A DNA stretch of 64,000 nucleotides from positions 2,015,501-2,079,500 of the forward strand of contig NZ_CP060695.1 of NCBI RefSeq assembly GCF_014352875.1. Reading direction: 5' to 3'. Of the stretch, positions 11,059 to 19,013 are shown piece by piece. Origin of the DNA: Polaribacter pectinis. Its GTDB lineage: Bacteria > Bacteroidota > Bacteroidia > Flavobacteriales > Flavobacteriaceae. Each line of letters begins with the position of its first letter. Position 1 is the stretch's first letter. A program made the position numbers and the translations under genes. The notes beneath the pieces are model-generated. The model worked only from the letters and a program-made list of their open reading frames with translations. It had not been told where the DNA came from and did not search any database.

Positions 11059-12177
11059 ATGAGCATTATAAAACTTCAAGATTTATACTTTAAACCTTAT
11101 ATCAATAAGGTAGAAATTGCTACAATTGTAAAGCATTTAGCAAATCAAGTAAAAGCAGACTTACCAAAAGACGAAGTTCCTATTTTTGTTGGAATTTTAA
11201 ATGGATGCTTTTTATTTGCTGCAGACTTTATTAGAGAATTTAATGGAAACTGCGAAGTTTCTTTTGTAAAGCTAGCTTCCTATGAAGGAACATCATCTAC
11301 AGAAAATGTAAAACAATTAGTTGGTATAAATGAAGATTTAACAGGCAGAACTGTAATTATTTTAGAAGATATTATTGATACTGGTAATACGCTTCAAGAA
11401 ATTTATAATATCTTTAGAAACAAGAATTTAAAACAACTAAAAGTTGCAACATTATTTTTTAAACCGGATGTATTTAAAAAAGAACTACCAATAGATTATA
11501 TCGGAAAAAGTATTGAAGATAAGTTTATTGTTGGTTACGGATTAGATTACAACGGTTTGGGAAGAAATTATCCAGAAATATATCAACTATCAACACAACC
11601 AAAAATGAAAAACATCGTATTATTTGGCCCTCCAGGAGCAGGAAAAGGAACACAAGCAGAATTCTTAAAAGACATGTATAATTTAGTACATATTTCTACT
11701 GGAGATGTGTTTCGTTTCAATATTAAAAATGCTACTGAATTAGGTTTATTAGCTAAAAAATATATGGACGAAGGAGATTTAGTACCTGATGAAGTAACCA
11801 TTAATATGTTAAAAGCAGAAGTAAATAAAAATGCAGATGCTAATGGTTTTATTTTTGATGGTTTTCCAAGAACACAATCTCAAGCAAAAGCTTTAGATGC
11901 TTTTTTAGCTGAAAAAGGAGAACAAATTAACGGAATGATTGCTTTAGAAGTCCCAGAAGATTTGTTAGTAGAACGTTTATTAGAACGTGGAAAAACAAGT
12001 GGAAGAACAGATGATACAGATGAAAGTAAAATTAGAAACCGTTTTAATGAATACAACACAAAAACGGCTATTTTAAAAGACTTTTTCAATTCTCAAGATA
12101 AATATTACGGAATTAACGGTGTTGGTTCTATTGAAGATATTACAAAACGTATTGCTGAAGTATTTGATACTTTATAA
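11059..12177 (+). CDS. adk: Hypoxanthine phosphoribosyltransferase-adenylate kinase fusion
   Basis: One uninterrupted 372-residue frame joins two purine enzymes. Residues about 1-180 are a hypoxanthine(-guanine) phosphoribosyltransferase: FVGILNGCFLFAADFIRE, then the PRPP-binding loop VIILEDIIDTGNTLQEI, then VGYGLDYNGLGRN. Residues 183-372 are adenylate kinase: P-loop GPPGAGKGT at 190-198, GDVFRFNI, DGFPRTQSQAKAL, and LLERGKTSGRTDDTDE, a short-lid form without a zinc domain. The Adk part starts at an internal Met183 and is otherwise complete. The fusion would couple purine salvage to AMP/ADP balance in the cytoplasm. Similar fusions are, as I recall, annotated in other marine Flavobacteria. 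Confidence 0.93.
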   Translation: MSIIKLQDLYFKPYINKVEIATIVKHLANQVKADLPKDEVPIFVGILNGCFLFAADFIREFNGNCEVSFVKLASYEGTSSTENVKQLVGINEDLTGRTVIILEDIIDTGNTLQEIYNIFRNKNLKQLKVATLFFKPDVFKKELPIDYIGKSIEDKFIVGYGLDYNGLGRNYPEIYQLSTQPKMKNIVLFGPPGAGKGTQAEFLKDMYNLVHISTGDVFRFNIKNATELGLLAKKYMDEGDLVPDEVTINMLKAEVNKNADANGFIFDGFPRTQSQAKALDAFLAEKGEQINGMIALEVPEDLLVERLLERGKTSGRTDDTDESKIRNRFNEYNTKTAILKDFFNSQDKYYGINGVGSIEDITKRIAEVFDTL

Positions 12178-16370: not shown

Positions 16371-16871
16371 ATGGATATTTTCTTACTCATTATTGGACTT
16401 TTATTAGTATTGTTAGGAATTATTGGCTCTTTTTTACCTGTTTTACCTGGACCTCTAACTGGTTGGTTTGGTCTTTTAGTTTTACATTTAACTTCTGTTA
16501 TTCCAATGAATTGGACTTTTTTATGTATAACTTTAGGAGTAGCAATTATAATTTGGGTGCTAGATTATATAATTCCTGCAATTGGTACAAAACGTTTTGG
16601 TGGAACAAAATACGGTGTATATGGAACCACGATTGGTTTAATAATTGGTTTGCTTACTCCTATTCCGTTTGGAATTTTAATTGGTGCATTTTTTGGTGCT
16701 TTAATTGGCGAATTAATGTTCGATAGTAAAGACACAAACAGAGCAATAAAAGCTTCTTTTGGTTCTTTTATTGGGTTGTTAGCTTCTGCAACTATTAAGT
16801 TTTCTGTTGCTGTGGTTTATGTGGTTTTATTTTTTATTAAATTCTGGGAATATAAAGGAGCATTTTTTTAA
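16371..16871 (+). CDS. DUF456 family membrane protein
   Basis: 166 residues from the ATG at 16371. A longer frame opens at 16341, but those codons fall in a promoter-like stretch (TACTTTCG at 16344-16351). The protein is almost entirely hydrophobic with about four to five helices and the Gly/Pro-rich turns typical of DUF456: FLPVLPGPLTGWFGLL, DYIIPAIGTKRFGGTKYGVYGTTIGLIIGLL, FFGALIGELMFD. Function is unknown. It is divergent from blaI and shares its operator region. Confidence 0.88.
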   Translation: MDIFLLIIGLLLVLLGIIGSFLPVLPGPLTGWFGLLVLHLTSVIPMNWTFLCITLGVAIIIWVLDYIIPAIGTKRFGGTKYGVYGTTIGLIIGLLTPIPFGILIGAFFGALIGELMFDSKDTNRAIKASFGSFIGLLASATIKFSVAVVYVVLFFIKFWEYKGAFF

Positions 16872-16902
16872 ATCGTTTTAACAAAAAGCTAGCAAACTAG
16901 TC

Positions 16903-17057
16903 TAGCCCTGATTGTAGCAATTGTTTGAGCTCTTTTTTTTATGCTGAACTAGACTCAGTATCTGTTATAAGTATGAAATTATTTATTTAAAAAAGCGAGA
17001 TGCTGAAATAAATTCAGCATAAAAGAAAAGCGAGTGCGGAAAGCAGGAAATAGCTTC
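16903..17057 (+). repeat. Structured dispersed repeat, copy A
   Basis: This stretch is repeated in inverted orientation at 57807-57958. Shared blocks are TAGCCCTGATTG, GTTTGAGCTC, ATGCTGAAC, AAAGCGAGT and AAAGCAGGAAATAGCTTC. It can fold into a long stem: ATGCTGAA at 16941-16948, and a second ATGCTGAA at 17001-17008, can each pair with TTCAGCAT at 17013-17020. I recall related elements scattered through Flavobacteria, possibly the RNA motif named Flavo-1, but cannot confirm that. Confidence 0.7.
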
Positions 17058-17076
17058 AAAAAAAAAATAAAAGGGC

Positions 17077-17187
17077 AAAAAAAAAGCGTCCCATTTAAGG
17101 GAAGCTTTCCATTGGTTAACAAAACCAAGACACTTTTACTAAAGTGCCAAAACAACACAACTAAATGCTACTTCAACAAAAAGTAGC
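17077..17187 (-). ncRNA. Predicted small RNA with four hairpins
   Basis: Downstream of an exact consensus promoter on the minus strand, about 110 bases fold as four consecutive hairpins. Forward positions are 17167-17187 (GCTACTT stem), 17131-17146 (CACTTT stem), 17112-17128 (TTGGTT stem) and 17083-17108 (AAAGCGTCCC with GGGAAGCTTT). The last is followed by a run of nine A on the plus strand, that is U in the RNA, so it is a textbook terminator. No open frame of note lies inside. It lacks the hallmarks of SRP RNA, tmRNA or RNase P. It lies between DUF456 and lysS, antisense to neither. Role unknown. Confidence 0.72.
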
Positions 17188-17190
17188 GGG

Positions 17191-17221
17191 CAAATATACA
17201 ACGATTTCGTAATTACACAAA
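17191..17221 (-). promoter_or_regulatory. Consensus promoter of the predicted small RNA
   Basis: Read on the minus strand: TTTG (17221-17218), a 19-base spacer (17217-17199), TATATTTG (17198-17191). This is an exact match to TTTG-N19-TAnnTTTG. The start site should fall near 17186-17187, at the foot of the first hairpin. Confidence 0.78.
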
Positions 17222-17251
17222 TAAATAAAGAGATTTTATTAATTCTGCAAA

Positions 17252-17282
17252 TTGTCTAATTCTTTAATAGATTGTATCTTTG
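17252..17282 (+). promoter_or_regulatory. lysS promoter
   Basis: TTG at 17252-17254, a 20-base spacer and TATCTTTG at 17275-17282 match the Bacteroidetes consensus. The leader to the lysS ATG would be about 31 bases. The promoter is back to back with that of the small RNA. Confidence 0.7.
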
Positions 17283-17318
17283 CTGTCTTTATAAAAAATC
17301 ACTAATAATTTAGACAGA

Positions 17319-19013
17319 ATGCAATTATCAGAACAAGAAGTTGTACGTAGAGAAAAGCTAGCAAAATTAAGAGATTTGGGTATAAACCCTTATCCTGCAG
17401 ATTTATTTCCTGTAAATTCTACTTCGAAGGAGATTAAACAGAATTTTGAAGAAAGCAAACAGGTAATAATTGCTGGTAGATTAATGTCTATAAATATACA
17501 AGGAAAAGCTTCTTTTGCGCAGTTACAAGATGGTGAAGGTAGAATACAAGTGTATTTTAATAGAGATGAAATTTGTACAGGTGAAGATAAATCTTTGTAC
17601 AATGATGTCTTTAAGAAATTATTAGATTTAGGTGATTTTGTTGGTATTGAAGGTGTACTTTTTACTACCAAAGTTGGTGAAAAAACTGTAATGGTTAAGA
17701 ATTTTAAGTTACTTTCTAAAGCCTTAAAACCTTTACCAATACCTAAAGTGAAAGATGGTGTTACTTATGATGCTTTTACAGATCCAGAAATGCGTTACAG
17801 ACAACGTTATGCAGATTTAGTGGTAAACCCACATGTAAAAGAAGTATTTGTTAAAAGAACAAAATTGTTTAATGCAATGCGTTCTTTCTTTAATGATGCT
17901 GGATATTTTGAAGTTGAAACTCCGGTTTTACAACCAATTCCTGGAGGAGCAGCTGCAAGGCCTTTTATAACGCATCATAATTCTTTGGATATTCCATTAT
18001 ATATGAGAATTGCTAACGAATTGTATCTAAAAAGATTGATTGTTGGTGGTTTTGATGGCGTGTATGAATTCTCTAAAAACTTTAGAAATGAAGGAATGGA
18101 CAGAACTCATAATCCTGAATTTACAGCCATGGAAATCTATGTTTCTTACAAAGATTACAACTGGATGATGGATTTTGCAGAGCAATTATTAGAGCACTGT
18201 GCAATTGCTGTAAACGGAACTTCTGAAGCTACTTTTGGTGAACATAAAATAGACTTTAAAGCGCCTTATGCAAGAGTAACTATGGCAGATTCTATAAAAC
18301 ATTTTACAGGTTTCGATATTACTGGTAAAACTGAAGATGAAATTAGAGCTGCTGCAAAAGGAATGAATATTCCTGTTGATGAAACAATGGGTAAAGGAAA
18401 ATTAATTGATGAAATTTTTGGTGAAAAATGTGAAGGAAATTACATTCAGCCTACTTTTATTACTGATTATCCAAAAGAAATGTCTCCTCTTTGTAAAGAA
18501 CACAGAGACAATCCAGAACTTACAGAACGTTTCGAATTAATGGTTTGTGGGAAAGAAATTGCAAATGCATATTCTGAATTAAACGACCCAATTGACCAAC
18601 GTGAACGTTTTGAGCATCAACTAAAATTAGCGCAAAAAGGAGATGATGAAGCTACAGAATTTATAGATGAAGATTTTTTACGAGCTTTAGAATATGGAAT
18701 GCCACCAACGTCTGGAATGGGAATTGGAATGGACCGTTTAATTATGTTTTTAACAAACAATCAATCTATACAAGAAGTTTTATTTTTCCCTCAAATGAGA
18801 CCAGAGAAAAAAGCGCCTTCTATTGAATTAAATGATGAAGAAAAAGCCGTTTTAGCAATTATTACAAAAGCTGAAAAAATAGATTTAAACGAATTGAAAA
18901 CTCAATCTGGTTTGTCTAACAAAAAATGGGATAAAACCATTAAAGGTTTAACTAAAAAAGATGTTGCTAAAGTTTCTAAAACAGATGAAGGTTTGTTTGT
19001 AGAAGCTTTGTAA
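17319..19013 (+). CDS. lysS: Lysine-tRNA ligase, class II
   Basis: 564 residues. An OB-fold anticodon-binding domain occupies roughly residues 50-150 (VIIAGRLMSINIQGKASFAQLQDGEGRIQVY). The class II core follows, with FVKRTKLFNAMRSFFND in motif 1, FRNEGMDRTHNPEFTAMEIY in motif 2 and GMGIGMDRLIMFL in motif 3. It charges tRNA-Lys with lysine. It is about 60 residues longer than the classical enzyme: the C-terminal part after MRPEKK resembles a winged-helix add-on (AIITKAEKIDLNELKTQSGLSNKKW), which I believe is common in Flavobacteria. Confidence 0.97.
   Translation: MQLSEQEVVRREKLAKLRDLGINPYPADLFPVNSTSKEIKQNFEESKQVIIAGRLMSINIQGKASFAQLQDGEGRIQVYFNRDEICTGEDKSLYNDVFKKLLDLGDFVGIEGVLFTTKVGEKTVMVKNFKLLSKALKPLPIPKVKDGVTYDAFTDPEMRYRQRYADLVVNPHVKEVFVKRTKLFNAMRSFFNDAGYFEVETPVLQPIPGGAAARPFITHHNSLDIPLYMRIANELYLKRLIVGGFDGVYEFSKNFRNEGMDRTHNPEFTAMEIYVSYKDYNWMMDFAEQLLEHCAIAVNGTSEATFGEHKIDFKAPYARVTMADSIKHFTGFDITGKTEDEIRAAAKGMNIPVDETMGKGKLIDEIFGEKCEGNYIQPTFITDYPKEMSPLCKEHRDNPELTERFELMVCGKEIANAYSELNDPIDQRERFEHQLKLAQKGDDEATEFIDEDFLRALEYGMPPTSGMGIGMDRLIMFLTNNQSIQEVLFFPQMRPEKKAPSIELNDEEKAVLAIITKAEKIDLNELKTQSGLSNKKWDKTIKGLTKKDVAKVSKTDEGLFVEAL

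What the first reader, a model, noticed from the sequence alone, without database searches (positions are those of the whole stretch)
17077..17221. Unannotated small RNA gene with an exact consensus promoter
On the minus strand, TTTG-N19-TATATTTG is followed at once by about 110 bases that fold into four tandem hairpins, the last a terminator with a long U run. The first hairpin sits right at the predicted start. There is no coding frame. It does not match SRP RNA, tmRNA, RNase P or 6S RNA by their known core motifs. Its promoter is back to back with that of lysS, so it could be a stable housekeeping-type RNA or a regulator.
Basis: partly seen in the sequence, partly recalled or inferred. Interest (0 to 1): 0.75.

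Follow-up and report, generated by a model that had tools for sequence, protein, structure and literature searches.

The report
Small RNA paired to purine genes
An unannotated small RNA gene, found in many genera of one large bacterial family, carries a nearly unchanging nine-letter stretch that could pair with the start region of purine-making genes, which suggests that it controls how these bacteria make the building blocks A and G.

Summary
Window 17077-17221 (-) has a TAnnTTTG promoter, four hairpins and a U-run terminator. It is a real RNA gene: 32 of 35 same-genus genomes carry it, two hairpins covary, and no Rfam family covers it. It is not 6S RNA. A strict pattern finds its core in 116 of 236 sampled genera of the family and in 0 of 246 genomes from 15 other families of the order. 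It sits opposite lysS, behind tRNA-Asp, or alone with a promoter box.

The conserved single-stranded part is GUUGUGUUG. Its complement, CAACACAAC, sits at starts of purB, purC, purF and purH in several genera, and of purE, purK and purM in one. In this genome it sits at purB, purC and both transketolase halves; start-near sites are 8 in the pairing orientation, 0 in the other.

Best explanation: a base-pairing sRNA, probably repressing purine and ribose-phosphate genes at translation initiation. Pairing, direction and expression are inferred. Most genera lack an exact site at a given gene, prs failed as a prediction, and a DNA operator is not excluded.

The parts
17218..17221 (-). -33 element TTTG
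   Evidence: variable in relatives
17191..17198 (-). -7 element TATATTTG (Bacteroidetes sigma-A box TAnnTTTG)
   Evidence: exact in 27 of 30 same-genus loci, own included
17077..17186 (-). small RNA gene; +1 near 17186 is inferred from the box lying at -12 to -5 in F. psychrophilum (passage)
17167..17187 (-). hairpin H1 at the 5' end
   Evidence: 5 of 7 pairs with two-sided changes; copies with room for it (box 20-35 nt before the seed) are lysS-linked in 55 of 56 scored loci
17153..17161 (-). single-stranded GUUGUGUUG, proposed seed
   Evidence: invariant in 29 of 29 aligned same-genus rows; predicted unpaired 0.96-0.99 here, mean 0.95 over 146 cores that were chosen by a pattern holding this element
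17129..17148 (-). hairpin H2, variable sequence with conserved pairing
   Evidence: 4 of 6 pairs with two-sided changes; the H2-H3 segment has z < -2 in 134 of 146 cores
17112..17128 (-). hairpin H3, nearly invariant inside the genus, variable outside
17080..17110 (-). terminator hairpin H4 with invariant left arm GGAAAGCTTCCC in the genus
17077..17085 (-). U run of the terminator
11591..11599 (+). CAACACAAC 5 nt before the adk ATG; doubtful target, since it lies inside an in-frame hpt-adk fusion frame

Best explanation
The gene makes a ~110-nt trans-acting base-pairing small RNA of the Flavobacteriaceae. Shown by sequence: a sigma-A type promoter box, stable hairpins, an intrinsic terminator, and an open, highly conserved GUUGUGUUG element. 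Shown by comparison: its complement CAACACAAC, sometimes extended to AAAACAACACAAC, is over-represented just before start codons of de novo purine genes, and seen at some ribose-phosphate pathway genes, in the orientation that can pair. Inferred: the RNA pairs there through 9-13 continuous pairs. Inferred: this hides the A-rich start region on which initiation depends in these bacteria and so represses translation of purine genes when the RNA is abundant. The signal that sets its level is unknown. In many genera it lies behind tRNA-Asp, which could tie it to growth rate (speculation).
For: Gene: 32 of 35 same-genus genomes (the three misses are at most 71% complete); model R1 hits 62 of 397 family genomes; strict pattern 136 of 299 genomes and 116 of 236 genera, reversed-pattern control 0 in the rows listed. 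Two-sided changes in 9 of 27 pairs and 36 cells, against 4.5 and 7.1 in shuffles and at most 6 and 19 in slid structures. Targets: among the 30 best-scoring loci for each gene, own included, the exact site lies near the start in 4 of 30 (purC) and 5 of 30 (purB). Without own, CAACACAAC ranks first among 126 A5C4 permutations at purC (3 of 29, next 1) and at purB (4 of 29, next 2); it occurs in 0 of 513 unselected start windows, where the mean word has 0.23. Complement of 9 nt or more: purB 8 of 29, tktN 6 of 29, purC 3 of 29, against 3 of 452 unselected windows. Of 38 frames behind ACAACACAAC, 16 were de novo purine genes. Own genome: 8 start-near sites in the pairing orientation, 0 in the other. 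In genome G091 the purD site (named by eye) lies in a short gap behind an upstream frame whose stop begins 18 nt before it. Purine sites came from 10 of 26 genomes with a strict sRNA hit and 0 of 15 without (Fisher p 0.005).
Against: No transcript was seen. Most genera lack an exact site at purB or purC (25 of 30 and 26 of 30). prs, found in this genome, was a prediction test and failed: 1 of 29 other genera, inside the coding region. At tktN other A5C4 words are commoner (up to 7 of 29 against 1 of 29), as coding constraint would give. Letter shuffles of the seed complement sometimes reach the observed counts of 9 nt or more: maximum 10 against 8 (purB), 9 against 6 (tktN), 5 against 3 (purC); shuffle means 1.9, 1.5 and 1.1. 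The adk site lies inside an hpt-adk fusion frame. 79 of the 109 target places were picked by hand from the listing, and one of them (L403, purB of G107) was known to me. Sites at purE, purK and purM were seen in one genome only. The seed is nearly invariant, so no compensatory change between RNA and target was sought. Some site-bearing genes (agmatinase, pnp by eye, GAPDH, PEP carboxykinase) are not purine genes. With model hits counted as carriers the split is 10 of 30 against 0 of 11 genomes (p 0.027).
Confidence: 0.68

Rival explanations
1. CAACACAAC / GTTGTGTTG is a DNA operator of an unknown purine transcription factor; the RNA gene is one more member of that regulon and its GTTGTGTTG is the operator, not a seed.
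For: Many sites lie between a promoter-like box and the start codon; GTTGTGTTG lies 4 nt behind the box in 11 of 120 named-genome loci.
Against: Orientation is one-sided: 8 versus 0 in this genome, 4 of 30 versus 1 of 30 loci (a doubtful 103-aa frame) in the family. Behind tRNA-Asp, in the rows shown, the element lies 9-132 nt after the tRNA, mostly with no box within 120 nt. The G091 purD site sits in a short gap behind an upstream frame. The element is predicted single-stranded in a covarying RNA.
Confidence: 0.15
2. GUUGUGUUG and the conserved terminator arm bind a protein (an RNA chaperone or ribosomal factor); the RNA is a protein partner or sponge, and the A/C-rich sites at purine genes are translation enhancers with no pairing.
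For: The left arm of the terminator is invariant in the genus although pairing alone would let it vary. The seed contains GUUGU twice where U follows. A at -3, -6, -12 and -13 favours initiation in F. johnsoniae (passages).
Against: Exact complementarity of the conserved element to sites concentrated on one pathway is unexplained; CAACACAAC leads the 125 other words of the same composition at purC and purB.
Confidence: 0.1
3. It is the family-wide form of Rfp18, the protease-controlling sRNA of F. psychrophilum, and purine genes are secondary.
For: Rfp18 is conserved in Flavobacterium, strongly structured, and has a third stem-loop (passages); Flavobacterium species carry the present RNA, in the rows shown mostly behind tRNA-Asp.
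Against: Rfp18 is reported to pair through its third stem-loop, while here the conserved element is single-stranded.
Confidence: 0.07

Closest known systems
FopS / GibS sRNAs of Bacteroides thetaiotaomicron (PMC11697453, passages seen)
   Same: FopS: single-stranded 5' region with a seed, Rho-independent terminator, sigma-A-type promoter, pairing near start codons.
   Different: FopS is a family of 14 paralogues aimed at polysaccharide-utilisation genes; this RNA gave one match in 31 of the 32 same-genus genomes that have it (the second match in G013 is weak), has extra hairpins, another seed and purine-gene sites. Rfam, where FopS is said to be deposited, gave no FopS hit.
Rfp18 of Flavobacterium psychrophilum (PMC9723704, passages seen)
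   Same: Structured intergenic sRNA conserved in Flavobacterium.
   Different: Reported targets are metalloproteases, through the third stem-loop; identity with this RNA could not be tested.
6S-Flavo RNA (RF01685)
   Same: Small RNA of Flavobacteria.
   Different: The genome has a separate 6S-Flavo gene at G000:C1:785730-785837, 95.3 bits; no 6S family among the low-threshold matches here.
Flavo-1 (RF01705)
   Same: Lies downstream of this gene, on the other strand, in relatives L004 and L021.
   Different: Different element; its function is unclear in print (passage).

Membership tests
trans-encoded base-pairing sRNA | independent transcription unit: promoter and intrinsic terminator | tested here: met
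   (by sequence only, for this genus)
trans-encoded base-pairing sRNA | no conserved reading frame | tested here: met
   single-base indels between relatives
trans-encoded base-pairing sRNA | conserved unstructured seed | tested here: met
trans-encoded base-pairing sRNA | complementary sites at start regions of functionally related mRNAs, conserved across species | tested here: inconclusive
   sites at purB, purC, purF, purH in several genera; patchy, and prs failed
trans-encoded base-pairing sRNA | transcript present; target level changes when it is removed | not testable with these tools
   needs RNA and genetics
6S RNA (RF01685) | match to the covariance model | tested here: not met
   true 6S elsewhere
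SRP RNA, tmRNA, RNase P RNA | match to an Rfam model | tested here: not met
   no match at gathering in the window
Rfp18 | sequence identity with the F. psychrophilum transcript | not testable with these tools
   sequence and coordinates not in the passages seen
Flavo-1 (RF01705) | match to the covariance model | tested here: not met
   the sub-threshold hit lies next door at 16900-17054 (+), not on this RNA

The most novel reading that the evidence does not exclude
In Flavobacteriaceae one small RNA does the job that PurR-type repressors or riboswitches do elsewhere: a single conserved seed reads a common CAACACAAC tag at the start codons of much of the de novo purine pathway plus its ribose-phosphate supply, and its linkage to tRNA-Asp in many genera ties purine supply to growth.
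Probability: 0.35. Interest if true: 0.9.

Novelty: new member of a known kind. Interest (0 to 1): 0.78.

Why it matters
I found no description of purine regulation by an sRNA in Flavobacteria in the listings. These cover open-licence PMC papers only, and of the papers listed there I looked into one, PMC2864571 (passages). A family-wide RNA with a near-fixed seed and a tag on one pathway would be a clean test case for base-pairing control in bacteria that start translation without Shine-Dalgarno pairing. It would also be a new RNA family for annotating a major marine and soil lineage.

Tried and rejected
Tried and dropped. Rfam at low threshold on 16800-17500: hits on this RNA (Phe_leader, SpF41, nse_sRNA and others) are far below their gathering scores; the one of these printed as an alignment, Phe_leader, matches mainly the last hairpins. 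6S was rejected. BLAST hits of 27-48 nt in other families (G041, G042, G047, G050, G058) were treated as chance. A micro-ORF in the linker (AUG GAA AGC UUC CCU) was rejected: its stop and its AUG are not conserved. A long-range helix between UGUUG and the CRRYG linker is pair-compatible in the variants that I noted but was not tested. adk as a firm target was dropped after the hpt-adk fusion was seen. prs was not confirmed outside this genome. The letter-shuffle control was not clean, so I rely on the 126-permutation and unselected-window controls. Literature searches.

Limits of the counts. The strict pattern misses carriers: G071, a 'no hit' genome, has the RNA with a gap just over the limit. 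So 116 of 236 genera is a lower bound, and the 'without' group is not proven free of the RNA. purC, purB, tktN and prs were read in the 30 best-scoring of 58, 60, 59 and 59 genomes with a match. purF, purH and the rest were found by pattern only and were not surveyed gene by gene. The unselected windows are mechanically called frames around the 120 pattern loci. Rows dropped: L424 (same place as L325) before the counts; L027 (alike to L026) and the three same-genus matches for which no locus was held (G002, G011, G034) are not in the alignment; own-genome rows were left out of the 29-row counts.

Full report
WHAT IS THERE. On the minus strand TTTG-N19-TATATTTG (17221-17191) is followed by a stretch that folds into four hairpins, the last with a long T run. 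The fold is much better than shuffles (z -4.06). The promoter string alone is not significant in a window of this size. Conservation is: the -7 box is exact in 27 of 30 same-genus loci, own included. The window's genus is probably Tenacibaculum: one same-genus contig (G017:C15, 429062 bases) has the same length as a record named Tenacibaculum finnmarkense.

CONSERVATION. BLASTN finds the gene in 32 of 35 same-genus genomes; the three misses are at most 71% complete. In 29 aligned copies GUUGUGUUG and most of GGUUUUGUUAACCAAUGGAAAGCUUCCC are invariant, while H1 and H2 change on both sides of their pairs. In the pair count 9 of 27 pairs and 36 cells have two-sided changes, against 4.5 and 7.1 in shuffles and at most 6 and 19 in slid structures; the shuffles do not keep relatedness. 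H3 and the terminator show no two-sided change within the genus, so they give no covariation evidence there. The covariance model R1 hits 62 of 397 family genomes, 41 of 237 genera, under strict filters. A strict pattern hits 136 of 299 genomes and 116 of 236 genera, with no reversed-pattern match in the rows listed. In an order-level sample it hits 37 of 50 genomes of this family and 0 of 246 genomes of 15 other families, many of the latter very small. Over 146 distinct cores, chosen by a pattern that holds the element, the middle segment folds better than shuffles (z < -2 in 134) and GUUGUGUUG is predicted open (mean 0.95). No Rfam family at gathering covers the RNA in the window or in 17 distant loci, and the true 6S gene lies elsewhere.

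CONTEXT. Scored copies in the genus are divergent from lysS in 29 of 29. Of 21 scored model hits (28 examined), 12 are lysS-divergent and 8 lie within 150 nt behind tRNA-Asp. Of 120 pattern loci, 80 are behind tRNA-Asp, 20 lysS-divergent, and 11 have a TAnnTTTG box exactly 4 nt before GTTGTGTTG (8 of all 178 loci examined could not be scored). With the box at -12 to -5 (F. psychrophilum, passage) that last group would begin its RNA with GUUGUGUUG itself. This is inferred.

WHAT IT MAY DO. In this genome CAACACAAC occurs 44 times. Eight lie near reading-frame starts (80 aa or more) in the orientation that can pair, none in the other: purC (7 nt before ATG), purB (5 nt), transketolase C half (17 nt), transketolase N half (over the start), agmatinase (32 nt), a frame read by eye as pnp (34 nt), one read by eye as prs (14 nt), and one site just inside an unknown 236-aa frame. 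For the seven named ones and adk, predicted duplexes run from -14.2 to -16.2 kcal/mol, against a 1% quantile of -13.6 in 452 unselected start windows from other genomes.

TEST IN OTHER GENERA. For purC and purB the 30 best-scoring loci each, from different genera and own included, were read. The exact 9-mer lies near the start in 4 of 30 (purC) and 5 of 30 (purB); for one purC locus (L254) the start codon is uncertain. Without own it ranks first among all 126 words of the same composition at both genes and occurs in 0 of 513 unselected start windows. Complements of 9 nt or more: purB 8 of 29, tktN 6 of 29, purC 3 of 29, unselected 3 of 452. A letter-shuffle control was less clean (maxima 10, 9 and 5; means 1.9, 1.5 and 1.1), and tktN is confounded by coding. 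prs, chosen as a prediction test, failed for the exact site (1 of 29, inside the coding region).

SEARCH FROM THE MOTIF SIDE. ACAACACAACN{0,16}ATG was sought in 149 family genomes; the listing was cut. I read 109 places: 30 given automatically, and 79 picked by me from the listing by the look of the spacer. By then purB, rpe and purH had come up in the automatic set, and one picked place (L403, purB of G107) was known; the genes of the other picked places I had not looked up. Of the 109, 38 began a frame of 90 aa or more, some of them internal to longer genes. Sixteen of the 38 are de novo purine genes: purF 5, purH 5, purB 2, and one each of purC, purE, purK, purM. Ten were named with NCBIfam (the purF and purM fragments score below the curated cut-off), the other six by the likeness of their N-termini, by eye. 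A rate of 12 in 3000 genes, a recalled round number, would give 0.15. In the 30 automatic loci alone, 4 frames of 100 aa or more were found: pnp (by eye), purB, rpe and purH; the opposite orientation gave 1 doubtful frame in 30. Genome G091 has sites at purC, purB, purE, purH (by eye), purK, purM and, by eye, purD; its purD site lies in a short gap behind an upstream frame. Purine sites came from 10 of 26 genomes with a strict sRNA hit and 0 of 15 without (p 0.005), or 10 of 30 against 0 of 11 when model hits count as carriers (p 0.027). The strict pattern misses some carriers, such as G071, which is not among these 15.

MECHANISM. Bacteroidetes lack Shine-Dalgarno sequences, and in F. johnsoniae A at -3, -6, -12 and -13 favours initiation (PMC6847099, passages). 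Pairing at CAACACAAC would plausibly hide this region. Repression is therefore the likelier sign, but sign, signal and any helper protein are unknown.

NOVELTY. Works like: a base-pairing sRNA with an open seed, as FopS/GibS (PMC11697453, passages). Membership in a described family: none found. Rfp18 (PMC9723704, passages) could not be compared. I rate it a new family of a known kind, with an unusual one-pathway set of sites if confirmed.

Noticed in passing
window 16900-17054 (+): Sub-threshold Flavo-1 element (31.6 bits against a cut-off of 42, E 1e-4) with a long insert, between DUF456 and the sRNA; relatives L004 and L021 have Flavo-1 above the cut-off downstream of the sRNA.
   Followed up: partly
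window 11059-12177 (+): A 372-aa frame that reads (by eye) as hypoxanthine phosphoribosyltransferase fused in frame to adenylate kinase (adenylate kinase part named).
   Followed up: no
L049, L065, L070, G140, G298: Some genomes carry two or more copies of the RNA, in L065 and L070 each behind a tRNA-Asp gene.
   Followed up: no
G059, G108, G138, G229, G246, G272, G274, G293: Here H2 and H3 seem replaced by one nested hairpin (reads GACCC...GGGCC, by eye), while both conserved ends stay.
   Followed up: no
alignment A2 and sequences: UGUUG of the seed could pair with the linker CRRYG (CAAUG, CGAUG, CAGUG, CAACG seen), closing a multi-helix junction; this would compete with target pairing.
   Followed up: no
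L081, L109, L133: Contigs filed under Nitrotoga, Rhizobium and Rhodobacteraceae metagenome bins carry this RNA; probably mis-binned Flavobacteriaceae.
   Followed up: no
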